From NCBI GenBank assembly GCA_009760885.1, contig CM019704.1, forward strand, positions 11,988,303-12,052,302: DNA of 64,000 nucleotides, in the 5' to 3' direction. This DNA is from Achatina immaculata (lineage: Eukaryota > Mollusca > Gastropoda > Stylommatophora > Achatinidae). Position 1 is the stretch's first letter; the number at the start of each line of letters is the position of its first letter. A model generated the notes under the pieces. It worked only from the letters and a program-made list of their open reading frames with translations, was not told the origin of the DNA and searched no databases. Positions 7,648-37,437 of the stretch are shown in pieces. A program made the position numbers and the translations under genes.

Positions 7648-8003
7648 AGAAAGGGGGAGAGAGAGAGAGGAGAGGGAGAAGAGGAGAGAGAGTTTTACCT
7701 ACAATTCGTAGAAATTAGTGTATCAGATAACAGCAGCAAACATTAAACAGACAGCGCTGTCTTAGATGTTTAAGAGATTTTAGGGCAAGATAACATGAAG
7801 CAGACAGCGCTGTCTGAGATGTTTAAGATATTTTAGGGCACGATAGTCCAGTTCAAGTTAACCTCGTTAAGGTGAGGTATTGCTGAAGTATAGCTGAGGT
7901 ACTGATGAGTACTTGTGAGGTACTTGTGAGGCACTGGTTGTTGAGGTTACGAAGTTAGGCCATCGTACACTAGCTAGTACAAATCTGTGATATATCAACA
8001 TAC
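7604..8003. repeat. GA run and spacer, copy 2
   Basis: The GA run (7604-7693) is followed by a near-exact copy of 6346-6667, leading directly into the 30-bp array. Confidence 0.85.
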
Positions 8004-12953: not shown

Positions 12954-13487
12954 ATGTGGTCAACGTTTAAATCAGTTCAAGAGAAGATTTCTGGGGGTGT
13001 ACCCAGACTTCAGATGACCATCTGTTACTTCAGAAGTATACAAATTGATGCCTGAGAATGAAAGAAGACGAAGAAGAAGAAGAAGAACAACAACACCAAC
13101 AATCTCGTGACAATGAAAAGACTAGAACTATTGTGACAATGAAAGAACTAGAACTCTTGTGACAATGGAAGAACTAGAACTGTTGTGACAATAACAGAAT
13201 CAGGATTGCGATTAACTGATCACAGAGAAAGGTTTGGGTTTGAAAAAATAAAACTTGATAATTTGTGTGGATGATAGTCCTGTACTGAAGTCAACGACTT
13301 CGTGTATGAAAAAGTGTTACGTGAAACAATGTCTGTTTTGTTTGAGAGCAGAAACTTGCATTTAAGTTAGAAAACAGTGCTTCTATATTTATCCTTGCGT
13401 GTAGGAATATCTCATCTGTGGTGTTACAACTTCGACATAGCATCTTCCACAAAATTCTTGTCTGGTTTGCTATTTCTGAGATGTGGC

Positions 13488-13577
13488 AGTTCACTTTCAG
13501 TATGTTCACTTTGCTCTCCATTCACAGATCACATTTCACTTTCAGTATGTTCACTTTGCTCTCCATTCACAGATCAT
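13488..13577 (+). promoter_or_regulatory. Duplicated 3' splice-site-like segment upstream of Fezf
   Basis: A 45-bp segment occurs twice in tandem. Each copy ends in TTTGCTCTCCATTCACAG, a good pyrimidine tract plus CAG acceptor (AG at 13526-13527 and 13571-13572). The coding start follows 54 bp after the second AG. I infer a 5' UTR intron with two equivalent acceptors 45 bp apart. The frame is open through here, but that stretch is probably not translated. Confidence 0.45.
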
Positions 13578-13625
13578 TTGTTGGCACTGCCTTTGTGGGC
13601 CAGGACAGAAACTACTCACAGCAAG

Positions 13626-15545
13626 ATGGACATGGCAGGTGATGAACGCGGAGCATCTAGCATGGCAGCAAAGAAGATTTTAACTTTCTCTATTGAGAAC
13701 ATTATGAAGAAGAATCCTCAAAGTTCTGCAGACTGCTCCACCCGCGCGTCTTCATCCCCAGATAGTTCTTCTGTTGATCCTACACAACTGCCAGACCACG
13801 TGATCACACCACATAGCCCTGTCATGGATGTTACCAAGTCAAGAACCTTCAGAAATGACACTTGTGAATGTAGAAGTCCTGTAGCTTCACTTGCATTCCC
13901 TCCATCCACGCACAAGAAAACCTGTGCCGGCACCTGCAAGACGCCTACACCTACATCTGTAGATCTTGTAGCAAGTCCCAAGAGGAACGCAGGATCTCAC
14001 TCCCCTGTTTGTGGAGCGTCTCTTCGCCAGACCCCACTCCGTTCACCACGATCACATGACTACCAGACCCCACTCCGCTCACCACGATCACATGACTACC
14101 AGACCCCACTCCGCTCACCACGATCACATGACTATTATAAGTCGCGAAGCAATTCGTCTCCTTGCTCTCTTCCAGATTTGAACAGCCAAGCTTTCATCCA
14201 CTATGCCCGGGATCTACCTGACCCAACACATGGCCAGCCCATGATGTCTGGATTCCCAAAAGGTTTGAACCCTGTGCATGCAGATCTTGGTCATGATTTT
14301 CGAGAACTGAGCCACATGTACTCCATGCTTCACCCTGCTCTTGTGGGAACAATCTCAAGGGGGACAACCTCTGTAGAAGAATATCAGGCCCAGCTTCTGA
14401 GAGCTTGCCCGTGGTTGGGGTCTGGGATAATGACGCAGCTTGGCGCAGGGCACCTGCCACACCTTCCTACAAACATCTTGGAAACTATGAAACATTCACA
14501 TCTTCTTCACAACTCTCTGAGGAACTCTTCCTATAGTACCAACAGCAGAGTAAACTTCAACAACAACATGGGTGACGTGACGTCACATGGGGCTGACAAC
14601 CCGGTGATGCTGAAGTATGCCCTGTCAGTCAATGATCTCCCTGGCAAACAGCTCAGACCCGGGTCTCGAAACATTCCAGGCAGTTTGATGGTGTCCGGGC
14701 CCTCAGATAAGCGAGGCTGCTCTTACGAGTCACACAGTTCCGACTCCAGTCAACACATTTCAGTGAAGACTGAGGACAGCAATGAGGAGGACGACCAGTG
14801 CGTTGACCTATCTTCTCCGAACAGTTCAGGAGCCACGAGCAGCATTGAGGACTGTAAATCAAAGAAGCTGCTGGGCAAGTCCCAGAAAACGTTCACTTGC
14901 CCCGAGTGTGGCAAAGTTTTCAACGCCCACTACAATCTGACGCGCCATATGCCTGTGCATACAGGGGCGCGACCCTTTGTCTGCAAGGTTTGTGGCAAAG
15001 GTTTCCGCCAGGCCAGCACGCTCTGCCGACACAAAATCATACACACTTCAGAGAAACCGCACAAATGTGCGACCTGCGGGAAAGCTTTCAATCGAAGCTC
15101 CACACTGAACACGCACATGCGCATCCACCAGGGCTACAAGCCGTACGTGTGCGAGTTCTGCGGCAAAGGTTTCCATCAGAAAGGAAACTACAAGAACCAC
15201 AAGCTGACCCACAGCGCAGAGAAGCAGTACAAATGTAATGTATGTTCTAAAGCCTTCCACCAAGTGTACAACCTGACCTTTCATATGCACACCCACAACG
15301 ACAAGAAGCCTTATACATGCCATGTTTGTGGCAAAGGTTTCTGTCGGAACTTTGATCTTAAGAAGCATATGAGGAAGCTCCACGATGGAAGCCAGCTAAA
15401 CAACCCAGGAAACTGCTCGGATACTGTTAGCCCTCAGCCCGCAGTCTCGCAGACCGCCCACGCTAATATCTTCATCTACATTTCTCCCATTCTATCCATC
15501 TACATGTCCGCCACTATTTTCATCCACATTTCCCTCACTCTCTAG
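13626..15545 (+). CDS. Fezf: Fez-family zinc finger transcription factor
   Basis: Predicted 639-aa nuclear DNA-binding protein of the Fezf1/Fezf2/earmuff family, which in animals acts mainly as a repressor in forebrain and anterior neural patterning. The N-terminus has an EH1 motif (FSIENIM, residues 21-27) for Groucho/TLE recruitment. Residues 135-170 are three exact copies of [12 protein letters not shown] from a 36-bp repeat. An acidic, serine-rich stretch precedes six C2H2 fingers at 28-residue spacing, with first cysteines at 425, 453, 481, 509, 537 and 565. All six have intact C and H pairs; the last ends HX4H at 581-586. The finger block is nearly invariant in this family, which makes the call secure. 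I chose ATG 13626 because it is just before the EH1 motif and has A at -3 and G at +4. The frame is open back to 13377, but that part includes duplicated acceptor-like DNA. The coding region has no intron. The last ~25 residues are repeat-like and may not be the native end. Confidence 0.93.
14028..14135 (+). repeat. In-frame 36-bp triplication inside Fezf
   Basis: Three tandem 36-bp units encode [12 protein letters not shown]. The first differs by one silent C/T change. The repeat adds three SPR-type sites between the EH1 motif and the fingers, and is probably variable in copy number. Confidence 0.95.
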
Positions 15546-18966: not shown

Positions 18967-20859
18967 TCAAAATATTTTTCTAATTCTTCGTAAACAGTTA
19001 GTCTGGAAAGAATTCAACTTGTTTTCTATGGTTTTGGTGATTAACCAGCATTCACTTCCATAGAGTAATACACTTAGAACATTACTCTTAAATATCCTGA
19101 TTTTCATATTTATGCTTAGTTTTTTTTTATTTCCATATAGTCTGCAGCATTGCAAAAGCCTGGTTTGCTCTAGTAAGTCTGCTGTTGATGTCCTCTGTGC
19201 TCTCTCCATTTTCTACTACTCTACTGCCAAGATATATTCGTCGACCTCATCCACTAACTTGCTATCTTCTCTGAGGACATTTCTGTTGTTCACATTTTGC
19301 TTCATTAACTTTTTCTTTCCTACGTTGATCTTTAGTCCTATGTTGTTTGCATTCTGAGTCAACTTGTTTATTTTATCTTGCATATCTTTGTGGCTGCTTG
19401 ATAGTAGACAAATGTCGTCCGCAAAGTCAAGGTCCTCCAGCACTGTGTCAAGGGTCCATTGTAATCCTCTGCGTTTGTCTGATGTTGCCTCCTTCATTAA
19501 CCAGTCTACTGCCAAGATAAATAATGTTGGTGATAGTACACATCCCTGCTTCACTCTTATTTGTACCCTAATGCTGCTGGAGGTATGTTCTCCACAGATC
19601 ATTTGCGCCGAAGACCCTCGTATAGGGCTTTGATTACATTCACTATCTTATGGGGGAGGCCATGCCATCTTAGGATTTTCCACAGTGCATCTCCGCTGAC
19701 ACTGTCAAAGGCTTTCTCAAAATCTATAAACAATGCATATGTTTTACTATGTCACTCATTTACCTGTTCTAATATTTGTCTAAGTACAAATATGTGGTGT
19801 ATGCATGATCTTCCTTTCCTAAATCCTGCCTGCTCTTTCTGAAGTTTTCCCTCAAGTGCTGGTACAATTCTATTGATGATTATTCTGCAAAATACTTTAC
19901 TGGTGAGTGGTAGGAAGGTAATGCCTCTCGAGTTCCCGCAGTCTCTGAGGTCATCCATCTTTGGTAGTTTTATTATAACGCCACTTTTCCACTCCTCTGG
20001 GGCTTTTTCTAGATCATAAATTTGTTGTAATATCCGGCAAAGTTGTTTTGGTGTTTCTGTTTCTTCTGTTTTCAACATCTCAGCAGTCACTTCATCTTCA
20101 CCTGGTGCCTTGTCTAATTTTAGCTTCTTTATTGCCTTCTTTACTTCACTTATTGTTATTGTTTCTGTATTGATGTTTAGTTCCGTTTTTGCTTCAGGTA
20201 TGTCTATTGTTTGTGCTGCTTGTGTTCTGTTTAGTAGGGTGTTAAAGTGCTCCCTCCATCTTTCAATTTTTTCTCTTTCTCCACTGACCAGTTGTCCCTT
20301 TAGTGTCCTTATTGCACTCTCACATCTTGTGCTGAAGTTACCTGTCATCTGCTTTGTGATTTTGTATATAGTTTTCATGTCATTTGCATATGCTGCTTTC
20401 TCTGCTGCTTCTGCTAAGTTATCATAGTATTGACGTTTATCTTGACGGCATGATTCCTTCACTTCTTTGTCTTTTTGTGCATAATTATTTAAAACTTGTT
20501 CTTTTAGCCCTTGTGATTTGGTGTTCAGTAATTTTTTCTTGATTTCCTTTCTTTGTTCTATCTTTTCCCATGCGGTCTTGCTTATCCATTCCTCTTTTCT
20601 CTTTTTTCGATATCCCAGCACCTCTTTTGCTGTTTGCTGTAGTGTTTTATTGAACTCTAGTATGGACATTTCTGCTTCGTCTTGTAGGACACTGAAGCGG
20701 TTCTTAAGTACTATTGAGAATTCATTTCTTGTTTGCTGGTCTTACAGTTTTCTTGTATCAAAACGCGTCTTTCTGTGTTCTCCGATTTTGGCTTTCTTTA
20801 ATTTTAGTTTTATTTTTGCTACCAGAAGGTTGTGATCACTTCGTACATCTGCTCCTTTC
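18967..20859 (-). pseudogene. LINE reverse transcriptase, broken
   Basis: Encodes the linker and RT: KAPGEDEVTAEMLK, a GFRKGRSC motif, FIDFEKAFDSV (catalytic region A, about 19705), GCVLSP, and DFADDICLLSS (catalytic YADD-type box, about 19420). It is broken by a TGA near 19752, a frameshift near 19603 and a stop near 19216. The last part (18967-19209) holds the conserved LYGSECW segment. It copied LINE RNA at nicked target DNA when active. Confidence 0.8.
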
Positions 20860-20863
20860 CTTG
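20860..20863. other. Target site duplication CTTG (left)
   Basis: CTTG directly before the left LTR matches CTTG at 27412-27415 directly after the right LTR. It is a 4-bp duplication as made by retroviral-type integrases. Confidence 0.85.
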
Positions 20864-21541
20864 TGAAGCAGAATCACGGCGCCACTGAAACAGGTTTCCC
20901 CTTACAAGGAGACTACTGGTTTGATTGATTCTTCTTGTGGAGTACAGTTTCAACTTATAAGTTTCTTCTTGTTGCTGGTGTTCTAACCATCACCTAATTT
21001 TCTGTATTATACACTAAGAAAATACAACAAGACACCCAGGCTTTCAACTCCACAAAAGATAGTACAATACAACAACTTGAACATAACTTGGCAGTCTTCC
21101 GACCAAAACAAACTGGTCAACAATGAGAATTTCCACAAAGCCAATTGGTGTAGTTTATCATCAGACAACACACATTTATTACAGAAATTCACAGTAACAA
21201 ATGCCCGGCGTGAAATATCTACGCCACATGGGCAAGGAAAACCTTACAATGATTTATTCATACCAAAAACCATACTTACAGGCTTACCAAGGACTGCAGC
21301 CACACAGAAAAAAACAAACTAAACTAATTCTGACAACAAGACTCGCTCTACCCCATTCTCGTTCGCCCAACACGTCCATCCAGTTCAAAGTTCCACACAT
21401 AGACTGCCTAACGACCGGCTTTTTCACACGGACCTTTTTAACGACTTCTTTGCACACGTACTTTCCTAATGACGTAGTCTACGCAACACAATTATTAGCA
21501 ATACACAAAAACTCTCTGAACAGAATGGCTATTCTGTTACA
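20864..21541 (-). repeat. 3' LTR of the gypsy element (678 bp)
   Basis: Matches 26734-27411 throughout as far as I can compare. It starts and ends TG...CA. At its right edge is a 20-bp hairpin-forming sequence, AACAGAAT GGCT ATTCTGTT. On the minus strand AATAAA occurs at about 21252-21257, a candidate poly(A) signal. The 61-aa frame inside has no family signature. Confidence 0.95.
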
Positions 21542-21547
21542 GAATAT

Positions 21548-21560
21548 CTCCCCACCCCCT
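21548..21560 (-). promoter_or_regulatory. Polypurine tract of the gypsy element
   Basis: On the minus strand AGGGGGTGGGGAG lies six bases before the 3' LTR. This is the expected position and composition for the plus-strand DNA primer. Confidence 0.85.
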
Positions 21561-21916
21561 AAAGGTAGATATTTGGCGATCAAATATCTCCAACCAAACA
21601 AAAAAAAATTGCGAACTTGCACAGAAAACTCTCACGAACTGTGAGCGATAACAATGAATTTAAAGCTGAATATTCAGCTACAAAAAAAAATTTCATGCAC
21701 CCACAATTTGTACAAATTAAGTACGTTAAACATTTGTGGTGCAAACATAAAATACATATATTTACAACATTTTTAATACTGAGTTCTGTGAACTACACCA
21801 TCTATTTCTACTGCCATAGAAATAGGATAGAAGCAAAGGATGAACTCCTTTTTCGAAGAACACTACCCAACTAGTGTCTATTGTGCTTTTCTTTAGAAAT
21901 CCCTATAGATTTCAAA

Positions 21917-24900
21917 CTATTCAGTAGAAGGAATCGCAGTTAATATGTTGATCACAACACGTTCTATGAACTGCTTCCTGCCATCTAGTTCCAATAGTGG
22001 GAACTTTTCCATAAGTGCTTTATGGAGATCTTTCATCGTGAACGTTTCTAAGTCCACGGTATCCATTATCTGCCCTATTGCCACAACGAGCTTACGATCG
22101 GAGACGTACAACTGATCAATCTCCGTATCGCAATCGGCACTAGGTGAAGTCTCTTCAGGGAAATAATCTTCACTGTGAGGACAGTGTTCCTTCTGAGACT
22201 TATGGCAGATATCGGCTCTCCTCCGTTTCTTCCGCCTATGCCGAGGTCGCAAGTCATCCACCGACATAGGAACTGCTGAGGCGGAAGCATCCACCTCCAT
22301 ATAGTGGTCTGAGGGAGGAGCTCTAGGGACCACTCTCTGCTGGGTTTCCTTCAGGTACCACGGTGGGAGCCTGGGAACAAAACGAGGAGGCGGCGGAAGA
22401 GAAAATCTCTGTCTAATGGGACGCGGCAAGTAAGATCTACAACGATCTTGCTGATATTGCCTCTGAAAGGTCCCACCAGGCAACGATACATTAATGGCGA
22501 CGTCCTGAACCATAGGACACAATGTATTGGTCGCCCTCTCTACTCTCTCTTTCTGCTGACAGGGACACGGCAAGTCAGTCTGCACAGAGCAATCTACTAC
22601 AAGCGGAGGCTCTGCCTGTGAATAGGCCTCCACAACGCTCACTGACTTTACGACATATGTCTCAGATCCTTGTGACTGAGGGACGTCCCCATCAAGAACG
22701 TGAACTGGTACTGGTAGAGAAGTGGCACGATCGAAACTTGCCAACGTTGTCTCCCGCGCACCTGGATGAAAGAACATCTGAAGGTCCAGGGTGCGGAGGT
22801 TAGCAAACCACCTCTGCAACTTGACGTCTGACATCTCCTGTTTGCTGATAAATGCGTCCACCAAGGGTCTATGGTCAGTCTTCACAGCGAAATGTCTATT
22901 CGCCAGAAAATATCTCAACTTCTGCGTGGCGTAATGGACAGCATACGCTTCTCTCTCGAAAGTAGACCACTTAGTCTGCGAGCGCGACAGCTTCTGCGAA
23001 AGAAAATATAAGGGCTCTTCAACTGAGAGTCCATCAGAAGAGGAGGCTGTCTGCACCAAACAGGCTCCAACCGCAACATTGGAAGCATCTGTATACAATG
23101 TAAGTGGCTTATGCAAGTCAGGATGCGAGAGAAGCGGTACTTTCGCAAGGCGATCCTTCAAAGACTCGAACGCCATTTGACAGACTGGAGACCATTTGAA
23201 CCTATGACCCTTCTTGGTGAGGTCCACTATGGGAGCCACAATCTCCGAAAAGTGGGGAATGAAACGTCGATAGTAACTGCACGTCCCCAAAAAAGAGCGC
23301 ACCTCCTTCACATTCAAAGGAGACGGCATGTCGGCAATGGCTCTGACCTTCTCAGGATCAGGAGATATGCCTGACTGGCTGATGACATACCCGAGATACT
23401 TTGTCTCAGAGGCCGCAAAGTGACATTTGGATGGTTTGAGCTTGACCTGGTGCTCGCGCAATCGGTCGAATACCGCCTGAAGATCGCCAACATGGTCTTC
23501 GATCGTTCCATCAGTGAACACCAATATATCGTCAATATAGGCTTGTGCAAACTTGCCTAAGCCCTGTAATACTGTGTCCATGAGTGCGACAAAGGTAGAT
23601 GGTGCCCCTTTTAAACCAAAGCTCATGTAATTAAAACAGAAAGAACCCAGATGACAGCTAAAAGCTGACTTCTGCTGAGCGTCCTTGGACAAGGGAATAC
23701 ACCAAAAGCCACAACGAGCATCCAAAGTGCTGAAAAATTTGGCTTTGCCTATCGTGCTCAGGATGTCCTCAATGCGTGGCAATGGATATGACAATGAACG
23801 TGTCACCGCATTGAGTGCACGGTAGTCGCAGCAGAAACGATGGGTACCATCTTTCTTAGTCACCAAGACAACTGGTGATGACCACTCTGAGATCGTGCGA
23901 GAAATTATTCCGTCACGCAACATATTCTCGACGGCCCTCTCTATCACCTCTCTACTCGCCAACGGAGTGCGGTAGGGTTTCCTGGAGATTGGCGGATGAT
24001 CGCCTGTATCAATCTCCATCTGCACTGTCGAGGTATGCGATATCTCGGAATCAGTCAAGGCAAAGACATCCTTGTTCTGTGTCAACAACGTGGATATTAT
24101 GTCCTTGTGCACTTCAGGGCACTGAACCTGTCGAACGATAGTCTCAGAACGACTGTCAGGTGTTGTCTCCTCAGTACCAGAAACCTGCTGGATAGAGTCA
24201 ACTGACTCCGTGAATGGTGTCAATTTTCCTAAAACACATCCACGTCTGAGCTCGATGTGTTTACTAGAATGATTAATTACTGTCAACACGGGATAGCGAT
24301 TAGTGTGGAGCTCACATACTGAGTCTACCAACTCTATCTCCGGCTGGGACAGTAAGAATGGTGTCTCAATACCCTGAACCATATAAGAATTGCCAGATGG
24401 AAAATATGGTTGGGCTTTCAGTTTAAGAGGAATAAGATTGACGGAACGTGGAGAAAGAAGAGAAGAACGCTGGACACGAAGAATAGAAGCAATGTGTGCA
24501 TCTAATTCTAAAGGAATCATCTTGTTATGTATGTTTAGTGTATTAGAATTGTAATCGATGACAGCACCAGAACGAGACAAAAAATCACGCCCCAGAATGG
24601 CGGAACGGTTCATGTTGCGAACCACATAAAAGCAATGAGAAACAGTGACACCAGCAATAGAAATAGGTAAGTAAACTCTGCCAATTACTCTCATGGAAGC
24701 TGCAGTAACAGTCTGCAGAGTAATTCTAGCGGGCAAGAGCTTAGGAGCAGAACGTAAGGATCTGTATACAGAATCCTTGACAAGACAGACACTAGCTCCT
24801 GTGTCTAACAATGCTCGAATTCGAAAAGTATCAACAGAAACAAGGACAGAAGTAGGAGTCGGGGGATTCGCAGCCACCGAGCGTAGTGGTGTCGCATGCG

Positions 24901-24970
24901 AAAATGAGACAGAGTGTTTGGCAGATCTAGATGGTGTAAAGATACGGTCGGACACATGGGAGCTATTCAT
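21917..24970 (-). CDS. Gypsy pol: protease-RT-RNase H with a novel C-terminus
   Basis: 1017 residues from the first ATG; in practice probably fused to Gag by -1 frameshifting at 24985-24991. An aspartic protease has LLDTGAS at 54-60. The RT has the catalytic D417 and YIDD at 478-481, with intact flanking motifs such as FGLKGAPSTF. RNase H has D628 (TDAS), FEREA at 671-675, D699 and a D at 747. A zinc-binding HHCC module and DDE integrase core should follow, but neither is present. Instead residues 752-905 are proline- and arginine-rich with scattered cysteines, 908-918 form a basic cluster resembling a nuclear localisation signal, and 956-1012 form a predicted helical module with the pattern of a DEK_C domain (DLETFTMKDLHKALMEKF). 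All catalytic residues of the recognised enzymes are intact. Confidence 0.92.
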   Translation of the reverse strand: MNSSHVSDRIFTPSRSAKHSVSFSHATPLRSVAANPPTPTSVLVSVDTFRIRALLDTGASVCLVKDSVYRSLRSAPKLLPARITLQTVTAASMRVIGRVYLPISIAGVTVSHCFYVVRNMNRSAILGRDFLSRSGAVIDYNSNTLNIHNKMIPLELDAHIASILRVQRSSLLSPRSVNLIPLKLKAQPYFPSGNSYMVQGIETPFLLSQPEIELVDSVCELHTNRYPVLTVINHSSKHIELRRGCVLGKLTPFTESVDSIQQVSGTEETTPDSRSETIVRQVQCPEVHKDIISTLLTQNKDVFALTDSEISHTSTVQMEIDTGDHPPISRKPYRTPLASREVIERAVENMLRDGIISRTISEWSSPVVLVTKKDGTHRFCCDYRALNAVTRSLSYPLPRIEDILSTIGKAKFFSTLDARCGFWCIPLSKDAQQKSAFSCHLGSFCFNYMSFGLKGAPSTFVALMDTVLQGLGKFAQAYIDDILVFTDGTIEDHVGDLQAVFDRLREHQVKLKPSKCHFAASETKYLGYVISQSGISPDPEKVRAIADMPSPLNVKEVRSFLGTCSYYRRFIPHFSEIVAPIVDLTKKGHRFKWSPVCQMAFESLKDRLAKVPLLSHPDLHKPLTLYTDASNVAVGACLVQTASSSDGLSVEEPLYFLSQKLSRSQTKWSTFEREAYAVHYATQKLRYFLANRHFAVKTDHRPLVDAFISKQEMSDVKLQRWFANLRTLDLQMFFHPGARETTLASFDRATSLPVPVHVLDGDVPQSQGSETYVVKSVSVVEAYSQAEPPLVVDCSVQTDLPCPCQQKERVERATNTLCPMVQDVAINVSLPGGTFQRQYQQDRCRSYLPRPIRQRFSLPPPPRFVPRLPPWYLKETQQRVVPRAPPSDHYMEVDASASAVPMSVDDLRPRHRRKKRRRADICHKSQKEHCPHSEDYFPEETSPSADCDTEIDQLYVSDRKLVVAIGQIMDTVDLETFTMKDLHKALMEKFPLLELDGRKQFIERVVINILTAIPSTE

Positions 24971-24981
24971 GCGCCGACTTG

Positions 24982-25884
24982 TCAGTTTAAATGTACACGA
25001 TCCTTCCTTTCACTCTGCTTACAAAATCGGGCTATGTGACCTCTCCTTCCACAGTTATAACAAGATCTAGTTTCTTGTGGTAGTGTACTCGCAGGTTTAG
25101 CCTTCCTGGTATTCGATCTCTGGTGGTCTATCCTACCCGCTTCGAAGTGTGAAGACGTCCGTCGAGAGTTCTCCTGATGAGAGACTAACTGTACTCTCTG
25201 CGAATCCACACAAGGAGACTCTCTGTGTGTCGTCACCTCACCGGACGGTCGAGAACCTGCAATGAAAGCTTGTCGGGAACTACAACTAAGATTCACCGAC
25301 TTCATGAGGTCATTTTCTTGTAAGGCTAAGTCCACCGCCTGTGAAAACAGAACAGGTTTATCTCTTAATAATTTTGATTTCAATGCGCGAGAAAGTAGTG
25401 CATCTACAAACGACTGCACCATTTGCCTCTGCGCCAGCGGAGTTACCCATTCCGCCTCAGAGTAAGCAACTCTGGCTGCCTCACTGATGCGATCAGCCAG
25501 CGCTTGAATGGGCTCTCCAGGAGACTGTCGAGTAGAGGCTAGCGTATGCCAGGCCTCCTGAGGAGTCTGCAGCACCCCATATCGTGCTAATAAAACAGAT
25601 ACGAACTCCTCCCATGTCTCTTGAATCTGGAGTCGCTGTTTAACGAACTCTGCCAGCGAACCTGTGGTGCGTAAATACACCAAGTTCTTCTTACTGGGCA
25701 CATCAGCATTCCGCATGTCCATAATCTTATTAATCTCATCCAGCCATGGTTTCAATTTTGCTGGGTCCCCGTCGAACTTTGCTACAGCTGACATGACGTG
25801 GGAAAACCTCAAGTCATTGCTGACTTGGGACAGGGTATCTTGTAATAACCCCAGCAAATCTGACGTGGATGGAGCTGAAGCCAT
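24982..25884 (-). CDS. Gypsy Gag with CCHC zinc knuckle
   Basis: A 300-aa structural protein. The central region (about 30-190) is helical with the PWLDEI, TWEEFVSVLLARY and SPGEPIQALADRI segments typical of retrotransposon Gag capsids. A basic, serine-rich linker leads to a single nucleic-acid-binding knuckle CYNCGRRGHIARFC (C275, C278, H283, C288). The stop codon comes directly after the slippery heptamer that joins it to pol. The start is the first ATG after a ~830-bp leader. No breaks are seen. Confidence 0.9.
   Translation of the reverse strand: MASAPSTSDLLGLLQDTLSQVSNDLRFSHVMSAVAKFDGDPAKLKPWLDEINKIMDMRNADVPSKKNLVYLRTTGSLAEFVKQRLQIQETWEEFVSVLLARYGVLQTPQEAWHTLASTRQSPGEPIQALADRISEAARVAYSEAEWVTPLAQRQMVQSFVDALLSRALKSKLLRDKPVLFSQAVDLALQENDLMKSVNLSCSSRQAFIAGSRPSGEVTTHRESPCVDSQRVQLVSHQENSRRTSSHFEAGRIDHQRSNTRKAKPASTLPQETRSCYNCGRRGHIARFCKQSERKDRVHLN
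24985..24991 (-). promoter_or_regulatory. -1 ribosomal frameshift slippery site (T TTA AAC)
   Basis: On the minus strand the last gag codons read CAT TTA AAC TGA. T_TTA_AAC in the gag frame is a canonical X_XXY_YYZ heptamer. Slipping back one base gives TTT AAA CTG ACA, exactly the pol frame, which is then open to 21917. The stop codon directly after the heptamer is a common arrangement. Confidence 0.85.
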
Positions 25885-26716
25885 TGTGCGTCTATCCGTA
25901 GTGCACTCTACTTATTGTTAGTATATACCACTGAAATCAATACAATGCCACCATATACAGTAATGTCAACAATTATTCAAAACAATGGCATATCAATTAT
26001 TCATTATCATGCACTAATGCCATCCAACTAATAACCATAGAAAAGAAAATCAATTAAATACCATACCACGCACTAACTAACTACACTGAAGTCCTAAGTT
26101 AAATGAAAAGCCACAAGAGGTCTATGTACTGTTCCGAATATCACCACTAAAATCAATGTTCAATAAAGTCCCGCTAATAACACTGGAGAAGAATGTCCTA
26201 CAATGTCTATTCCAAATATAAGTGAATCTACAATGTCTGAAATCCTACACCACACATAAAGAGCACAATCCAAACTGTCCATGTATCAATGTCCACTCCT
26301 GTCTATCTGCCGAAATTGTGGAAAACCGTTAATTTTGTCAACATGTTACCTCCCCTGTCCGGATGGAGTTGGTTGAGAAGTAAATGTCGCTTGGAACAAC
26401 TGCTCTAGTTCCTCACCGGATAGTAGTTCAGGTTCAGTCTCACTGGACTTGATTGCAGGCACAGGTAGGCTTCAGTAGCTGCACTGCCCAGGACCCAGGA
26501 CTAGATGTGACACAAACTTTCTTTTGGGTAGGCCGGACATCATCGCCGATTTGAATAACTTCTACGATAACTGTCTCTGACACTAACAAAAATACTATTC
26601 CCTATCCAAAACTTGAAAACCACTGACGAAACATACTAGCAACACACAACTGTGGGCTAGAAAAAACGTGCATGAACTGTTAAACATGTAAACAAACACA
26701 CTGGACGTGACAAGTG
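25885..26716 (-). other. Gypsy untranslated leader
   Basis: About 830 bp between PBS and gag without a substantial ORF. It is expected to hold packaging signals; none can be defined by eye. Confidence 0.6.
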
Positions 26717-26717
26717 G

Positions 26718-26732
26718 CCTGATACGGCACCA
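26718..26732 (-). promoter_or_regulatory. Primer binding site of the gypsy element
   Basis: On the minus strand TGGTGCCGTATCAGG starts one base after the 5' LTR. It begins with TGG, as required to pair with a tRNA CCA end. I cannot name the tRNA with confidence. Confidence 0.7.
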
Positions 26733-26733
26733 C

Positions 26734-27411
26734 TGAAGCAGAATCACGGCGCCACTGAAACAGGTTTCCCCTTACAAGGAGACTACTGGTTTGATTGATT
26801 CTTCTTGTGGAGTACAGTTTCAACTTATAAGTTTCTTCTTGTTGCTGGTGTTCTAACCATCACCTAATTTTCTGTATTATACACTAAGAAAATACAACAA
26901 GACACCCAGGCTTTCAACTCCACAAAAGATAGTACAATACAACAACTTGAACATAACTTGGCAGTCTTCCGACCAAAACAAACTGGTCAACAATGAGAAT
27001 TTCCACAAAGCCAATTGGTGTAGTTTATCATCAGACAACACACATTTATTACAGAAATTCACAGTAACAAATGCCCGGCGTGAAATATCTACGCCACATG
27101 GGCAAGGAAAACCTTACAATGATTTATTCATACCAAAAACCATACTTACAGGCTTACCAAGGACTGCAGCCACACAGAAAAAAACAAACTAAACTAATTC
27201 TGACAACAAGACTCGCTCTACCCCATTCTCGTTCGCCCAACACGTCCATCCAGTTCAAAGTTCCACACATAGACTGCCTAACGACCGGCTTTTTCACACG
27301 GACCTTTTTAACGACTTCTTTGCACACGTACTTTCCTAATGACGTAGTCTACGCAACACAATTATTAGCAATACACAAAAACTCTCTGAACAGAATGGCT
27401 ATTCTGTTACA
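26734..27411 (-). repeat. 5' LTR of the gypsy element (678 bp)
   Basis: Same length as the 3' LTR and apparently identical to it. It carries the same edge hairpin and AATAAA. Confidence 0.95.
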
Positions 27412-28106
27412 CTTGCTCGCACATCTTGTAGTGATTTTTTCCACTTGTTGTTTATTAGTATGTGATCGATTTGGTTTTCTGTGGTTTTATCTGGGGACCT
27501 CCAAGTCGCTTTATGGATGTTTTTATGTTGGAAAATTGTCCCTCCGACGGTCATCATGTTTTCTTCACAGAAACTGCACAGTCTTTCTCCATTTTCATTT
27601 ATTTCTTCGATTCCTTCTCTTCCCATCATTCTTCTTCTATCTTCATTTCCCTTACCTACTTTTGTATTGAAGTCACCCAAGATGAGTAGCATATCACGCT
27701 TGAGTATTGTTTCTACTGTGGCTTGGTGGCTGTTGTAAAAATCTTCTTTTAATTCCTCTTCAGCTGCTTCTGTTGGTGCATAACAAGCTATAACAGACAG
27801 CTTCGTGAATCTTGAGTTGAAGCATGCATATAATAATCTCTCATTTATGGGGGTTCATTTCAGCAATGCTCTTGATGCTTCTTTTGTTATAATCAATGCT
27901 GCTCCTCCTTCATGATGATCTTCTTTACCTGACCATATTATTGTATCCTCTGTGTGCTGTGTTGTTAATTTCCTTCTGCCTTGTCCTGTCCATCTTGCTT
28001 CTTGTATTCCTAGTATGTCTAGTTTGTATCTGTGCATTTCCTAGATGGTTTGTGCTAGTTTTCCAGTCTGGTTAAGTGTTCTTACATTCCAACTGCTCAT
28101 TTGCAT
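27412..28106 (-). pseudogene. LINE AP-type endonuclease, broken
   Basis: Starting near 28106 (MQMSSWNVRTL), the frame shows the expected motifs in order: QEARW, GGAALI, CYAPTE, GDFNTKVG and DHILIN. There are two nonsense changes (TAG near 28045; TGA at 27855-27857 where tryptophan is expected). The gypsy insertion cuts it just before its last catalytic motif, SDHN, which lies on the far side at about 20830. The codon phase is continuous across the insertion once one CTTG is discounted. Confidence 0.8.
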
Positions 28107-28889: not shown

Positions 28890-29874
28890 GCTAGAGGAGA
28901 AGGTGTCGGGGGGGGGGGGGGAAGCGGAGAGATAATGAATGAAGAACATAAACACCTGCGGGGAGAAAATGTGAAACTGTTGAATAGAACAAGACCTTAT
29001 AGGTCGCCAAAGAAGAAAAGAAGGTGGCGATAGGGAGGGAAGCTGGGAGAAAGAAGCAAGAAAGTAGAGTATAAATCACAAAAAGGGGGTAGGAAACTAA
29101 AGAAACTAAAGAAGTTAAAGAAAGCGGAAGACATTGTTAATTAACGCTGGGTGGAGACAGACAGCCTGGAAAATAAGGCGATGTTCTAGGACCCTCCGAG
29201 ATCGTACATCAGCAGAACAAGAGCGGATCGCACTAACAGAAATGTCCTGTTTACCCCTGTGGTTGCTAAAGCAAAAATGTTTAGCCACAGGTGTCCAGGC
29301 CCTCTTAGAAATGTCGTTAAGATGTTGGCTAAAATGATCTCCTAAGCGTTAACCAGTCTCATTATATACTTCATACCACAAGGTTTGCACATAATAGCAT
29401 AAATAACATTGCATGAAGTGCAGGTGAAACCCTCCTGAACTGGTAACGTGGACTTAGGGAAGGAGATCTGGCTAGCCTCGACAACAAACGGACAAATGTT
29501 ACATCTACGGCGTCCGCAACGTCTGGTACCACAAAAAGTGTCATCTGTCTTAAGGCGACTTGGTTCTCCAAAAAGTTCACGTGTGTCAGGCTCGATCTGG
29601 GGGAGATGGAGATGGGAAACAGTATGTTTTTAACTGCCAAACTATGAGGGTGGTGCATGAGTACCAGTTTAACTCTGTCCGAGCTACAGTGCGGAGTGAG
29701 GGCTTGTTGCTGCGATATATGGATGATGCGGTTCCAAGATGACGAGAGAACATGTTCTGGATAGCTGCGTTGACATAATAAATCTAGCATTTTATGGCCT
29801 TGATCCCGGAAATCAACATCCTCAGTACATAAACGTCGTAACCTTGAGACCCTTACACTCCTGCTTGGCCACAC
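28890..29874 (-). pseudogene. PLE RT C-terminus and endonuclease, broken (minus copy)
   Basis: The 29371-29874 frame carries the end of the RT (SRLRRLCTEDVDFRDQGHKML) and then drifts out of frame in the region encoding the zinc-finger linker. The plus strand has homologous sequence at 30420-30870. GIY-YIG residues are not intact. Confidence 0.65.
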
Positions 29875-29884
29875 CTACCATATC

Positions 29885-30870
29885 TTCACTCTTGATGTAG
29901 TATCCTTATACACATCCATCCCGCATAATCAGGGACTTCAGGCCGTCAAATTCTTTCTCTATTTCTACGTCTACTATTCTGCACCTTACACGACTTGTCC
30001 TCCAACTCAATTCTTTTGAATTCAATGGCCTGTACTTCGACCAGATAAGTGGTGTAGTCATGGGTACCAAAACTGGCCCTAGCTACACATGTCTGTTCAT
30101 GGGCCACTTCGAACACAAGGTTCTGAGATTCTGTAGAGGTCCCTTTCCCGCCTTTTATAGACGATACACAGATGACGGCATTGGGTCACATCAGTGTCAG
30201 AGGAAGATCTTGACAACTTTATCAGTTTTGTTAAGGAGTACAATCCTGTCATTTCCTTCACCTCCCATGTCTCTGCTACTTCCGCTAACTTTCTTGACAT
30301 TGCCGTCACCATCGGCCCTTCCGGGCTTACTACTTCTAACCACTATAAACCTACAGACTCTCACAGCTACCTCTTGTACTCTTCCTCTCATCCCAGATCG
30401 TGTAAGGACTCTATTTCTTTTTCCCAGCTTCTTAGGTTGCAAAGTTTTTGTACTGAGGATTTGGATTTCCATGATCAAGGCTGTAAAATGCTAGATTTAT
30501 TTCGTCAACGCGGCTAGCCAGATCTCCTTCCCCAAGTCCAAGTTATCAGTTCAGGAGGGTTTCACCTGCACTTCATGCAATGTTATTTATGCTATTATGT
30601 GCAAACCTTGTGGTATGAAGTATATAGGTTGAGACCGGTTTACGCTTAGGAGATCATTTTCGCCAACATCTTAACGACATTTCTAAGAGGGCCTGGACAC
30701 CTGTGGTTAAACATTTTTGCCTTACCAACCACAGGGGAAAATAGGACATTTCTGTTAGTGCGATCCGCTCTTGTTCTGCTGATGTACGATCTCGGAGGGT
30801 CCTAAAACAGTGCCTTATTTTCCATGCTGACTGTCTCCGCCCAGCTTTAATTAACAATGTCTTCAGTTTC
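29885..30870 (+). pseudogene. PLE reverse transcriptase and endonuclease, broken (plus copy)
   Basis: Recognisable PLE RT segments occur across shifting frames: TLDVVSLYTSIPHNQGL, the catalytic FYRRYTDDGIGSH (YxDD type, about 30157), SVSEEDLDNFISFVKEYNPV, FLDIAVTIG, YKPTDSHSYLLYSSSHPRS. It ends with CTSCNVIYAIMCKPCGMKYIG of the GIY-YIG domain near 30570-30630 (21 residues, so quoted only as positions beyond its first part), followed by a stop. At least four frameshifts or stops break it. Confidence 0.75.
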
Positions 30871-30978
30871 CTTTAACTTCTTTAGTTTCCTTTAACTTCT
30901 TTAGTTTCCTTTAACTTCTTTAACTTTCCACGACTAATTTTTGTGATTTATGCTTTATTTTCTTGTTTCTTTCTCCTA

Positions 30979-32273
30979 CGAGGGGTGATTGATAAGTTCT
31001 CGGCATAAAGTACAACAGATTATTTGTGGACAACTTTTTTGGGTTATTTCTCAACATAGTCTCCTTGCAGGGTTTATGCATTTGGTCCAGCGATCCTGGA
31101 GCATACAGATCCCTTCTTTGTAAAAGTCAGCATCTTGTGCCAGTAGAAAGTGGTCTATAGTATGAATGACGTCATCATCCGAAGAAGATTTGCGACCACT
31201 GAGCTCCTTTTTGAGTTTGGTAAACAGGCAAAAGTCCGAGGGAGCCAAATCTGAGGAATAAGGAGGATGTTCAAGAAGCTGGAAGCCACATTCATGAATG
31301 ACAGCCACTGCCACCACCGACTTGTGAACTGGAGCATTGTCTTGATGAAAGATGACTCCTCTCTTCAATTTTCCTCGGTGCTTTTCCTTCAGTTTGACCC
31401 GCAGTTGCTTCACAAGATTAGCGTAATAGGCCCCGGTGACTGTTCTGCCCTTTTGAAGATAGTCTACCAATAGCACACCTTCTGAATCCCAAAAGATGGA
31501 AGCCATCATTTTGCCTGCAGACAGAACCACCCTTGCTTTCTTTGGAGGTGGGGATCCATGGTGTTTCCACTGCTTTGACTGTTCTTTGGTTTCTGGTTGA
31601 AAACGATGAACCCAAGTCTTATCCATAGTCACAAATTGCTGAATAAACTTTTCAGGATCTGCAGAAAAATGGCCAAGATTGTCTCTTGACATATTGAGAC
31701 GCTGTCGTCTGTGATCAGCTCCAAGAAGTTTCGAGACCCACCGAGCAGAGACCTTTGTCATTTGAAGATCATTGTGAATAATGGCATGAACACATACCTG
31801 GGAGATGCCCAACTCAGTAGCAATGTACCGCTCAGTTAGTCGTCGATCCTTTATTATCATGTCATGGATTCTGCTGGTGGTTTCATCGGTGGTTACCGTT
31901 CTTGGTCTTCTTGGACGGGGATCATCTTCCAGACTCTCTCTTCTATGTTTGAAATGAGTTGTCCTTTTCTTCACTGTGCTGTAAGAAGGGGCACTCTCCC
32001 CTAGAGTCTTTACCATATCCTCATGGATCTCCTTCAATGAAAAGCCCTTGATGCAGAGGTAGCGAATGATTGCTCGATGAGAAATTTTATCCATTTTCTC
32101 AATTTCTGCCACCCCTTTACCACTTCAGTAGGCTGTAAAAAAAATTGATTGCAGTTAATTTCTTGAAACTTGGCGTTTAATCTTACATTAACCTGATCTA
32201 CAAATGCACCTAATATTAACTGCGTGTTTCAAGTATTTCTACCTTATGTCGAGAACTTATCAATCAACCCTCT
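30979..32273 (-). mobile_element. Complete mariner transposon
   Basis: A 1295-bp element flanked by TA on both sides (30977-30978 and 32274-32275). The terminal inverted repeats are about 30 bp: left CGAGGGGTGATTGATAAGTT, right (inward) AGAGGGTTGATTGATAAGTT, then TCTCGRCATAARGTA-like. It contains one uninterrupted transposase gene. Confidence 0.93.
31051..32112 (-). CDS. Mariner transposase, intact
   Basis: A 353-aa cut-and-paste transposase. The N-terminal paired-type DNA-binding region (about 10-115) includes GFSLKEIHEDM and SYSTVKKRTTHFK. A basic linker RPRRPRT lies at 66-72. The catalytic domain has D164 (MDKTWVH), D258 (HQDNAPVH) and D293 (LAPSDF), a perfect D34D spacing that defines mariner. 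There is no stop or frameshift, and its length fits the family (about 340-355 aa). It is probably active or only recently silenced. Confidence 0.93.
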   Translation of the reverse strand: MAEIEKMDKISHRAIIRYLCIKGFSLKEIHEDMVKTLGESAPSYSTVKKRTTHFKHRRESLEDDPRPRRPRTVTTDETTSRIHDMIIKDRRLTERYIATELGISQVCVHAIIHNDLQMTKVSARWVSKLLGADHRRQRLNMSRDNLGHFSADPEKFIQQFVTMDKTWVHRFQPETKEQSKQWKHHGSPPPKKARVVLSAGKMMASIFWDSEGVLLVDYLQKGRTVTGAYYANLVKQLRVKLKEKHRGKLKRGVIFHQDNAPVHKSVVAVAVIHECGFQLLEHPPYSSDLAPSDFCLFTKLKKELSGRKSSSDDDVIHTIDHFLLAQDADFYKEGICMLQDRWTKCINPARRLC

Positions 32274-33130: not shown

Positions 33131-36100
33131 CTAGTAGAAATAGTAAAACTACACCATACATCTCTGGCTATATCTACTAGAATTATTAAAACTATACCAT
33201 ATATCTCTGATTATCTCTACTCTACTAGAACTAGTAAAACTACACCATACATCTCTGATTATCTCTACTCTGCTAGAACTAGTAAAACTACACCATACAT
33301 CTCTGATTATCTCTACTCTGCTAGAACTAGTAAAACTACACTATACATCTCTGATTATCTCTACTCTGCTAGAACTAGTAAAACTACACTATATATCTCT
33401 GATTATCTCTACTCTGCTAGAACTAGTAAAACTACACTATACATCTCTGATTATCTCTACTCCACTAGAACTAGTAAAACTACACCATACATCTCTGATT
33501 ATCTCTACTCTACTAGGACTAGTAAAACTACACTATACATCTCTGATTATCTCTACTCTGCTAGAACTAGTAAAACTACACTATACATCTCTGATTATCT
33601 CTACTCTGCTAGAACTAGTAAAACTACACTATACATCTCTGATTATCTCTAATCTACTAGAACTAGTAAAACTACACTATACATCTCTGATTATCTCTAC
33701 TCTACTAGAACTAGTAAAACTACACCATACCTCTCTGATTATCTCTACTCTGCTAGAACTAGTAAAACTACACCATACATCTCTGATTATCTCTACTCTA
33801 CTAGAACTAGTAAAACTACACTATACATCTCTGATTATCTCTACTCTACTAGAACTAGTAAAACTACACCATATATCTCTGATTATCTCTACTCTGCTAG
33901 AACTAGTAAAACTACACTATACATCTCTGATTATCTCTACTCCACTAGAACTAGTAAAACTACACCATACATCTCTGATTATCTCTACTCTACTAGGACT
34001 AGTAAAACTACACTATACATCTCTGATTATCTCTACTCTGCTAGAACTAGTAAAACTACACTATACATCTCTGATTATCTCTACTCTGCTAGAACTAGTA
34101 AAACTACACTATACATCTCTGATTATCTCTAATCTACTAGAACTAGTAAAACTACACTATACATCTCTGATTATCTCTACTCTACTAGAACTAGTAAAAC
34201 TACACCATACCTCTCTGATTATCTCTACTCTGCTAGAACTAGTAAAACTACACCATACATCTCTGATTATCTCTACTCTACTAGAACTAGTAAAACTACA
34301 CTATACATCTCTGATTATCTCTACTCTACTAGAACTAGTAAAACTACACCATACTTCTCTGATTATCTCTACTCTGCTAGAACTAGTAAAACTACACCAT
34401 ACGTCTCTGATTATCTCTACTCTGCTAGAACTAGTAAAACTACACATACTCTGATTATCTCTACTCTACTAGAACTAGTAAAACTACACCATACATCTCT
34501 GATTATCTCTACTCTACTAGAACTAGTAAAACTACACCATACATCTCTGATTATCTCTACTCTACTAGAACTATTAAAACTACACCATACATCTCTGATT
34601 ATCTCTACTCTGCTAGAACTAGTAAAACTACACCATACATCTCTGATTATCTCTACTCTGCTAGAACTAGTAAAACTACACCATACATCTCTGATTATCT
34701 CTACTCTGCTAGAACTAGTAAAACTACACTATACATCTCTGATTATCTCTACTCTGCTAGAACTAGTAAAACTACACTATACATCTCTGATTATCTCTAC
34801 TCTACTAGAACTAGTAAAACTACACTATACATCTCTGATTATCTCTACTCTACTAGAACTAGTAAAACTACACCATACTTCTCTGATTATCTCTACTCTG
34901 CTAGAACTAGTAAAACTACACCATACATCTCTGATTATCTCTACTCTGCTAGAACTAGTAAAACTACACCATACTTCTCTGATTATCTCTACTCTGCTAG
35001 AACTAGTAAAACTACACCATACATCTCTGATTATCTCTACTCTGCTAGAACTAGTAAAACTACACCATACATCTCTGATTATCTCTACTCTGCTAGAACT
35101 AGTAAAACTACACCTACATCTCTGATTATCCTACTCTGCTAGAACTAGTAAAACTACACCATACATCTCTGATTATCTCTACTCTGCTAGAACTAGTAAA
35201 ACTACACTATACATCTCTGATTATCTCTACTCTGCTAGAACTAGTAAAACTACACTATACATCTCTGATTATCTCTACTCTGCTAGAACTAGTAAAACTA
35301 CCATACATCTCTGATTATCTCTACTCTGCTAGAACTAGTAAAACTACACTATACATCTCTGATTATCTCTACTCTGCTAGAACTAGTAAAACTACACTAT
35401 ACATCTTGATTATCTCTACTCTGCTAGAACTAGTAAAACTACACTATAATCTCTGATTATCTCTACTCTGCTAGAACTAGTAAAACTACACTATACATCT
35501 TGATTATCTCTACTCTGCTAGAACTAGTAAAACTACACTATACATCTCTGATTATCTCTACTCTCTGCTAGAACTAGTAAAACTACACTATACATCTCTG
35601 ATTATCTACTCTACTAGAACTAGTAAAACTACACATACATCTCTGATATCTCTACTCTACTAGAACTAGTAAAACTACACATACATCTCTGATTTCTCTA
35701 CTCTACTAGAACTAGTAAAACTACCATACATCTCTGATTATCTACTCTGCTAGAACTAGTAAAACTACACCTACATCTCTGATTATCTCTACTCTGCTAG
35801 AACTATAAAACTACACCATACATCTCTGATATCTCTACTCTGCTAGAACTAGTAAAACTACACCATACATCTCTGATTATCTCTACTCTACTAGAACTAG
35901 TAAAACTACACCATACATCTCTGATTATCTCTACTCTGCTAGAACTAGTAAAACTACACCATACATCTCTGATTATCTCTACTCTGCTAGAACTAGTAAA
36001 ACTACACCATACATCTCTGATTATCTCTACTCTGCTAGAACTAGTAAAACTACACTATACATCTCTGATTATCTCTACTCTGCTAGAACTAGTAAAACTA

Positions 36101-37437
36101 CACTATACATCTCTGATTATCTCTACTCTGCTAGAACTAGTAAAACTACACTATACATCTGATTATCTCTACTCTGCTAGAACTAGTAAAACTACACTAT
36201 ACATCTCTGATTATCTCTACTCTACTAGAACTAGTAAAACTACACTATACATCTCTGATTATCTCTACTCTACTAGAACTAGTAAAACTACACTATACAT
36301 CTCTGATTATCTCTACTCTACTAGAACTAGTAAAACTACACCATACATCTCTGATTATCTCTACTCTGCTAGAACTAGTAAAACTACACCATACATCTCT
36401 GATTATCTCTACTCTGCTAGAACTAGTAAAACTACACCATACATCTCTGATTATCTCTACTCTGCTAGAACTAGTAAAACTACACCATACATCTCTGATT
36501 ATCTCTACTCTACTAGAACTAGTAAAACTACACCATACATCTCTGATTATCTCTACTCTGCTAGAACTAGTAAAACTACACCATACATCTCTGATTATCT
36601 CTACTCTGCTAGAACTAGTAAAACTACACCATACATCTCTGATTATCTCTACTCTGCTAGAACTATTAAAACTACACCATACATCTCTGATTATCTCTAC
36701 TCTGCTAGAACTAGTAAAACTACACCATACATCTCTGATTATCTCTACTCTGCTAGAACTAGTAAAACTACACCATACATCTCTGATTATCTCTACTCTG
36801 CTAGAACTAGTAAAACTACACTATACATCTCTGATTATCTCTACTGCTAGAACTAGTAAAACTACACTATACATCTCTGATTATCTCTACTCTGCTAGAA
36901 CTAGTAAAACTACACTATACATCTCTGATTATCTCTACTCTGCTAGAACTAGTAAAACTACACTATACATCTCTGATTATCTCTACTCTGCTAGAACTAG
37001 TAAAACTACACTATACATCTCTGATTATCTCTACTCTGCTAGAACTAGTAAAACTACACTATACATCTCTGATTATCTCTACTCTGCTAGAACTAGTAAA
37101 ACTACACTATACATCTCTGATTATCTCTACTCTGCTAGAACTAGTAAAACTACACTATACATCTCTGATTATCTCTACTCTGCTAGAACTAGTAAAACTA
37201 CACTATACATCTCTGATTATCTCTACTCTGCTAGAACTAGTAAAACTACACTATACATCTCTGATTATCTCTACTCTGCTAGAACTAGTAAAACTACACT
37301 ATACATCTCTGATTATCTCTACTCTACTAGAACTAGTAAAACTACACTATACATCTCTGATTATCTCTACTAGAACTAGTAAAACTACACTATACATCTC
37401 TGATTATGTCTACTAGAACAAATAAAACTAAGCTATA
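33130..37437. repeat. 48-bp satellite, about 90 units
   Basis: The unit contains CTAGAACTAGTAAAACTACA, CCATACATCT and CTGATTATCTCTACTCTG. Units at the left edge diverge (ATTTCTAGTAGAAATAG). The C/T (ACACCATAC or ACACTATAC) and A/G (CTACTAG or CTGCTAG) positions sort into blocks; 33420-33860 recurs at 33900-34340. Single-base deletions cluster at about 35100-35840. CTAGAACTAG is a near-palindrome. Confidence 0.97.

What the first reader, a model, noticed from the sequence alone, without database searches (positions are those of the whole stretch)
21917..22717. Ty3/gypsy pol with no integrase and a DEK_C-like C-terminus
Seen: after RNase H (last conserved D at residue 747) the pol frame continues for 270 residues without the HHCC or DDE integrase signatures, then ends at a natural stop about 360 bp before a good polypurine tract. 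Residues 908-918 are a basic cluster. Residues 956-1012 (DRKLVVAIGQIMDTVDLETF and DLHKALMEKF onward, with GRKQFIERVVINIL) show the spacing of hydrophobic, acidic and basic residues I associate with the DEK C-terminal domain, a small helical DNA-binding fold. Known: autonomous Ty3/gypsy elements encode integrase. Inference: this family may have exchanged integrase for a chromatin- or DNA-binding tail and moves with integrase in trans, or uses an unknown route.
Basis: partly seen in the sequence, partly recalled or inferred. Interest (0 to 1): 0.88.

Follow-up and report, generated by a model that had tools for sequence, protein, structure and literature searches.

The report
Retrotransposon with integrase swapped for DEK_C
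A young, many-copy family of LTR retrotransposons carries a DEK-type domain where its integrase should be, and still inserts like an integrase-using element, probably by borrowing the enzyme from a sister element in the same genome.

Summary
Pol (24970-21917, minus strand) has PR, RT and RNase H, no integrase match, and a C-terminal DEK_C domain (Pfam E 1.1e-10, above the curated cut-off). It lies in a complete LTR element, 20864-27411: identical 678-bp LTRs, 4-bp target duplication, and gag joined to pol by a -1 slippery site with a stem. It is a family. In the host genome 40 of 46 pol rows span residues 1-1017, 37 of them without stops; DEK_C occurs at 150 or more places. The tail is under purifying selection. 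Of 21 copies opened, 18 have both outer LTR ends readable, and all 18 show a 4-bp duplication, as a DDE integrase leaves. A sister locus (L044/L045) is 96-99% identical in DNA over residues 43-230 and 409-711, shares 3'UTR, polypurine tract and LTR start, but has an integrase where the DEK_C tail sits. So this is a cassette replacement, not a deletion upstream of the tail. Most likely integrase acts in trans. The role of DEK_C is inferred, and only one sister was opened; that copy is broken.

The parts
26734..27411 (-). 5' LTR, 678 bp, TG...CA
   Evidence: 0/678 differences to the 3' LTR
20864..21541 (-). 3' LTR, 678 bp
20860..20863 (.). target-site duplication CTTG (one side)
   Evidence: joining the flanks with one copy restores a LINE reading frame
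27412..27415 (.). target-site duplication CTTG (other side)
26714..26732 (-). primer binding site TGGTGCCGTATCAGGCCAC, one nt after the 5' LTR; primer tRNA not identified
   Evidence: the 16 nt after the LTR are identical in 13 of the 20 copies for which one search printed them
24982..25884 (-). gag, 300 aa, one CCHC knuckle
   Evidence: zf-CCHC E 4.5e-5
24985..24991 (-). -1 slippery heptamer TTTAAAC directly before the gag stop
   Evidence: present in 21 of 21 copies
24947..24978 (-). stem-loop 6 nt after the slippery site
   Evidence: -15.2 kcal/mol, z -3.05, 3 of 200 shuffles as good; a longer 102-nt stretch gave z -1.33
21917..24970 (-). pol frame, 1017 aa: PR-RT-RNase H-linker-DEK_C
24572..24841 (-). 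aspartic protease, residues 44-133
   Evidence: gag-asp_proteas E 9.9e-8
23381..23860 (-). reverse transcriptase, residues 371-530
   Evidence: RVT_1 E 4.6e-31; Ty3
22793..23194 (-). RNase H, residues 593-726
   Evidence: RT_RNaseH_2 / RT_RNaseH
21896..22837 (-). exchanged cassette: from residue 712 to about 21 nt past the pol stop; sister L044 has another RNase H end plus integrase here
22106..22729 (-). linker, residues 748-955, Pro-rich, low-confidence (likely disordered) in the model
22217..22249 (-). basic cluster, residues 908-918 (NLS-like, inferred)
21941..22105 (-). DEK_C domain, residues 956-1010
21547..21560 (-). polypurine tract AGGGGGTGGGGAGA
   Evidence: also in sister L045

Best explanation
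This is a non-autonomous but coding Ty3/gypsy-type LTR retrotransposon. It makes its own Gag and, by -1 frameshift (inferred from the site), PR-RT-RNase H. The integrase module has been exchanged for a cassette made of a different RNase H end, a linker with a basic cluster, and a DEK_C domain. Its cDNA is inserted by a DDE integrase supplied in trans, most likely by IN-bearing sister elements in the same genome that share its polypurine tract and LTR start. The DEK_C tail probably keeps the RT or cDNA particle on DNA or chromatin in the nucleus, doing part of what a chromodomain-tailed integrase does elsewhere. Shown: architecture, copy number, selection, 4-bp duplications, one IN-bearing sister with a shared 3' end. 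Inferred: trans supply, and the role of DEK_C.
For: No IN match in pol, and no minus-strand frame of 60 aa or more between the 5' LTR and gag. 40 of 46 pol rows span residues 1-1017, 37 of these without a stop. The IN of L044 matches nothing in the fetched stretches of the 35 DEK_C-family copies. 18 of 18 copies with both outer LTR ends readable, out of 21 opened, have 4-bp duplications (12, one, five); for the first 13 of these the two LTRs differ at 0-2 positions. The empty site restores a LINE reading frame. Tail pN/pS 0.16 against core 0.16 among 21 copies. Sister L044: DNA identity 96.3% over residues 43-230, 98.9-99.3% over 409-700, 97.0% over 701-711, then 45% over 712-745, followed by H2C2 (E 1.7e-16) and rve (E 6.2e-13), then the same 3'UTR at 96.3%, the same PPT, and the first 14 nt of the LTR identical. 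rve places are abundant (150 scored of 567 candidates, all 150 over the cut-off).
Against: Only one IN-bearing sister was opened. Its frames are interrupted, part of its PR-RT region is missing, and residues 295-448 align at only 76.6% in protein. Its LTR is about 78% alike over the first 550 bases and not alike after that, so a shared U5 end was not seen. No working helper was shown. Another gypsy family could supply the integrase. Nothing here shows that DEK_C binds DNA or chromatin: its net charge is -1 over residues 956-1012, and Foldseek gave no significant match.
Confidence: 0.62

Rival explanations
1. Integrase comes in trans, but from an unrelated Ty3/gypsy family. L044 is a one-off chimera made when a DEK_C-form RNA recombined with an IN-bearing element, not the normal partner.
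For: L044 is interrupted and its LTR is not alike to the end. Other IN-bearing gypsy pols with long open frames exist, such as L043, whose PR-RT-RNase H region is 41% identical.
Against: The sister shares 3'UTR, PPT and LTR start as well as RT, so the pair share the U3-side end. 12 of 150 rve rows start at profile position 3-4, as L044 does, but of these only L044 was opened.
Confidence: 0.25
2. Simple internal deletion: the family once had RNase H-IN-linker-DEK_C and lost IN.
For: DEK_C ends Pol, where chromoviruses carry a chromodomain (position from PMC12440569, passages read).
Against: The full-length copies found share the form. The sister has IN in place of the tail, and the two differ from residue 712 onward inside RNase H (45% DNA identity), before any IN.
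Confidence: 0.06
3. The DEK_C tail gives an integrase-independent entry route, for example by host repair or recombination.
For: DEK is reported to prefer four-way junction and supercoiled DNA (PMC3176155, passages read), which could aid recombination.
Against: 18 of 18 readable duplications are exactly 4 bp, with LTRs starting TG, as expected of a DDE integrase.
Confidence: 0.04
4. Compatible with trans integration: DEK_C acts in expression, particle assembly or silencing evasion rather than at integration.
For: In plants, GAG-derived proteins carry DEK_C together with PC4 and zinc knuckles (PMC9784723, passage read). [quoted passage not shown]
Against: None direct; not tested.
Confidence: 0.25

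Closest known systems
Ty3 (Metaviridae, Ty3/gypsy LTR retrotransposon)
   Same: Residues 42-751 align to Ty3-G Gag-Pol 322-1011, E 1.4e-75; PR-RT-RNase H order, LTRs, PBS, PPT.
   Different: The alignment stops at the end of RNase H; Ty3's integrase part (recalled) has no counterpart, and a DEK_C tail follows.
Chromoviruses (gypsy elements with a chromodomain at the C-terminus of Pol; PMC12440569, passage)
   Same: A small, presumably chromatin-directed domain ends Pol.
   Different: In chromoviruses it follows an integrase (recalled); here there is no integrase and the domain is DEK_C.
Non-autonomous LTR elements mobilised by a partner (recalled: BARE-2 with BARE-1, Dasheng with RIRE2)
   Same: A missing function is supplied by an element that shares terminal sequences.
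   Different: Those lack gag or nearly all coding sequence (recalled). This one keeps gag, PR, RT and RNase H, and only integrase is replaced.
HadGAG2 / Ctrg10-like plant genes (PMC9784723, passage)
   Same: DEK_C joined to a retrotransposon protein.
   Different: A domesticated copia Gag gene, in plants; here a mobile Pol.
Orchid Ty3/gypsy elements with an m6A demethylase domain (PMC9289625, search listing only)
   Same: An extra domain acquired by a gypsy element.
   Different: As listed, an acquired extra domain; here a domain in place of integrase.

Membership tests
Ty3/gypsy (Metaviridae) autonomous element | Ty3-type PR-RT-RNase H in this order | tested here: met
Ty3/gypsy (Metaviridae) autonomous element | DDE integrase downstream of RNase H | tested here: not met
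   none in the window element, and no match to L044's integrase in the fetched stretches of 35 family copies
Ty3/gypsy (Metaviridae) autonomous element | LTRs with TG...CA ends, PBS, PPT, 4-6 bp target duplication | tested here: met
   two of 21 copies have LTRs ending TTTA (L014, L021); the 4-6 bp range is from PMC12440569 (abstract)
DEK_C domain (PF08766) | Profile score over the curated cut-off | tested here: met
   150 of 150 scored places in the genome over the cut-off (359 candidates)
DEK_C domain (PF08766) | Solved DEK C-terminal fold | tested here: inconclusive
DEK_C domain (PF08766) | Binds DNA | not testable with these tools
   needs a binding assay
Chromovirus | Chromodomain at the Pol C-terminus | tested here: not met
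   no chromodomain among the matches up to E 10
DIRS-like tyrosine-recombinase element | Tyrosine recombinase instead of DDE integrase | tested here: not met
   no such match; 4-bp duplications
Simple non-coding non-autonomous LTR element (LARD/TRIM) | No intact gag/pol | tested here: not met
   intact gag and pol frames in the window; pol in 37 of 46 rows full-length without stop; gag full-length without stop in 18 of 21 copies, (L013, L022, L023 matched in part)

The most novel reading that the evidence does not exclude
A two-form retroelement system: elements with shared PR, RT, 3'UTR, PPT and LTR start exist in an integrase form and a DEK_C form that exchange a cassette at a fixed place in RNase H. 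The DEK_C form has spread because its tail gives a positive function, such as nuclear tethering of shared particles, while integrase is a public good supplied by the other form.
Probability: 0.35. Interest if true: 0.78.

Novelty: new variant of a known kind. Interest (0 to 1): 0.66.

Why it matters
Autonomous LTR elements encode an integrase, and non-autonomous ones are usually reduced passengers (general knowledge). Here a young family with many copies keeps every other enzyme under selection and carries a chromatin-protein domain in integrase's place, beside a sister with a matching 3' end. That makes integrase sharing, and what a DEK-type domain does for a mobile element, directly testable in one genome.

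Tried and rejected
Rejected: chance resemblance to DEK_C; a single decayed copy; integrase hidden elsewhere in the element; deletion between RNase H and the tail.

Led nowhere: viral contigs and genome contigs gave no relative. NCBIfam gave only a protease match below its cut-off. Rfam and ARAGORN (bacterial settings) found nothing in the window. Structure searches were weak, and DEK was not among the rows shown; that absence is no evidence. The fold of a 102-nt stretch after the slippery site was not unusual (z -1.33); the 45-nt stem was. DEK_C dN/dS alone rests on few changes (3; single comparisons 0.14-0.74). Among divergent copies themselves the tail ratio goes up to 0.56 (L029 against L032), less constrained than the core. 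The 21 copies are the best-scoring ones by protein, which lowers nonsynonymous counts, for core and tail alike; one of them (L026) has a stop in the linker. The loose D-D-E pattern also fired in the acidic tail and was judged meaningless. In one search one motif coordinate was wrong (it printed CLVQT instead of the RNase H motif) and is not used. A count of IN copies with L044's own integrase did not complete.

Papers: searches ('dek c-terminal domain', 'retrotransposon', 'integrase'; 'DEK_C', 'retrotransposon'; molluscs), and on missing integrase: no listed title or abstract start reports a gypsy Pol with DEK_C. This holds for those term searches in an open-licence library only. PMC9784723, PMC12440569, PMC3176155, PMC12263440 and PMC6431247 were read as passages (PMC12440569 also abstract); others as listings. 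PMC2279821 is not held.

In one search the end was looked for over about 120 positions (90 for L022) by its 4-bp match; four of the five gave one candidate, L022 gave three, of which one follows TTCA.

Full report
The observation. The minus-strand frame 24970-21917 encodes 1017 residues. Pfam gives protease, RVT_1, RT_RNaseH and, at 956-1010, DEK_C with E 1.1e-10 and 41.8 bits against a curated cut-off of 24.8; no integrase family is listed up to E 10. The tail on its own gives only DEK_C. Against solved structures the tail matches human DEK's C-terminal domain (E 0.0033; 17 of 54 identical, 31 positive, 0 of 5000 shuffles as good). Homology to Ty3-G Gag-Pol covers residues 42-751 and stops at the end of RNase H. 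The tail is a real coding stretch: codon usage z 6.2, no in-frame stop against 14 and 17 in the other two frames of its strand.

The element. The pol lies in a complete LTR element, 20864-27411, inside a LINE (weak endonuclease and RT matches on either side). The LTRs are 678 bp with 0 differences and TG...CA ends; the target duplication is CTTG. Joining the flanks with one CTTG restores an open LINE frame across the junction. Gag has one zinc knuckle. TTTAAAC directly precedes the gag stop, and a stem begins six bases after it (z -3.05; a longer stretch gave z -1.33). This heptamer is present in 21 of 21 copies. A polypurine tract precedes the 3' LTR by five bases. No minus-strand frame of 60 aa or more lies between the 5' LTR and gag.

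The family. In the host genome (unnamed, 1.65 Gb, 145 contigs) the pol search gave 46 rows: 40 cover residues 1-1017 (37 without a stop), 4 more cover at least 982 residues, and 2 are halves of one copy; 45 of 3115 candidates were scored. The tail search gave 142 rows (142 of 930 candidates scored), 87-100% identical. The DEK_C stretch gave 150 rows (150 of 488 candidates), and the Pfam profile gave 150 rows, all over the cut-off (150 of 359). These counts are lower bounds. I opened 20 further whole copies, 8 divergent ones, and 6 found by the DEK_C profile and not in the tail list. All belong to the family. None of the fetched stretches holds a match to the integrase found later. RNase H runs into the tail without a gap in the 20 whole copies, and in one aligned piece in the 8 divergent ones (L033 only from residue 537 and with gaps). 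The 6 others are decayed or have an expanded linker repeat, and one (L039) has only the tail end. Pol differs by 0.73% on average among 21 copies, at most 1.15%.

Selection. Among 21 copies, pN/pS is 0.16 for residues 1-747 and 0.16 for the tail. Against six more divergent copies, tail dN/dS is 0.27-0.45 and core (320-747) 0.17-0.49; among four pairs of divergent copies the tail gives 0.32-0.56 and the core 0.19-0.36. So the tail is constrained, in the older comparisons less than the core. DEK_C alone has too few changes to judge well. Choosing best-scoring copies lowers the ratios, for core and tail alike.

How it inserts. Of 21 copies examined, 18 have both outer LTR ends readable, and all 18 show a 4-bp duplication: 12, L025, and L011, L018, L019, L022 and L026, where the 3' LTR is shorter and ends TTCA. 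The first 13 have 0-2 LTR differences. The other 3 (L015, L020, L027) have a missing or unaligned end and say nothing. Constant short duplications with TG-started LTRs are what a DDE integrase leaves (established knowledge; PMC12440569 gives 4-6 bp for most LTR elements). So an integrase acts on an element that does not encode one.

The sister. A profile search for rve found 150 scored places of 567 candidates. I opened two. L043 is a different gypsy family (41% in the PR-RT-RNase H region). L044 is a sister: residues 43-230 are 96.3% identical in DNA, 409-500 98.9%, 501-600 99.0%, 601-700 99.3%, 701-711 97.0%; then identity falls to 45% for 712-745. Residues 231-294 are missing, and 295-448 align at 76.6% in protein, across a frame break. 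After the break at 711, L044 has another RNase H end (NFSADLLSR), an H2C2 zinc domain (E 1.7e-16), rve (E 6.2e-13) and a weak integrase C-terminal match (E 0.00065, below its cut-off). About 21 nt past where the DEK_C form stops, the two become alike again: 3'UTR 96.3%, then the same polypurine tract and the same first 14 nt of the LTR, the LTR being about 78% alike over its first 550 bases and not alike after that. L044 is interrupted and its U5 end was not seen. So the two forms share the parts on both sides of one cassette. Which form is older was not resolved. The DEK_C form's RNase H end (712-747) still aligns to Ty3's RNase H end, so it is a different RNase H end rather than scrambled sequence, which points to recombination with another element.

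Mechanism. Best explanation: the DEK_C form is copied by its own Gag and RT and inserted by integrase supplied in trans by IN-bearing sisters with the same 3' end (0.62). DEK_C probably anchors the complex to DNA or chromatin; this is inference. DEK has a C-terminal DNA-binding domain (PMC3176155, PMC12263440, passages), but that domain is only auxiliary for nucleosome binding in DEK, and here its net charge is -1. Single-sequence models show a low-confidence linker and a helical domain, with weak forkhead-like matches only.

Comparison. It is Ty3/gypsy by RT, order and ends, but fails the integrase criterion, so it is not an autonomous member. It works like a partner-dependent LTR element, though far more complete than those I recall. 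It resembles chromoviruses in having a small tail domain, but without integrase. Plant HadGAG2 genes join DEK_C to a copia Gag (PMC9784723). No listing showed a report of a gypsy Pol with DEK_C; these are term searches of an open-licence library.

Noticed in passing
19752-20669 and 27399-27854 (-): A LINE (weak endonuclease and RT matches, below the curated cut-offs) is split by the element; its frame is open across the joined site.
   Followed up: yes
LTR end, 20864-20892 and 26734-26762 (-): The last bases of this LTR, GTTTCAGTGGCGCCGTGATTCTGCTTCA, contain what looks like an older LTR end followed by a primer-site-like GTGGCGCCG. Five other copies have a shorter 3' LTR, so the LTR end seems to have shifted.
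   Followed up: partly
31051-32112 (-): A 353-aa mariner-type transposase frame without a stop (Transposase_1 E 8.4e-24, HTH_48).
   Followed up: partly
13377-15545 (+): A host C2H2 zinc-finger frame with five zf-C2H2 stretches; FEZ-like by recall of the N-terminus, not tested.
   Followed up: partly
1308-3765, 7990-10087, 33135-37414, 43187-45689, 50980-54294, 60020-63051: Long minisatellite arrays fill much of the window.
   Followed up: no
L040, L041: The linker carries an expanded repeat of the type PSDHYMEVDARAL, so linker length varies among old copies while DEK_C stays similar.
   Followed up: partly
L029, L030, L036 against the window: Core dS is low (0.03-0.05) while tail dS is 0.15-0.17, suggesting recombination between subfamilies.
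   Followed up: partly
29099-30892: Inverted-repeat arms, 84-97% complementary in three pairs, unexplained.
   Followed up: no
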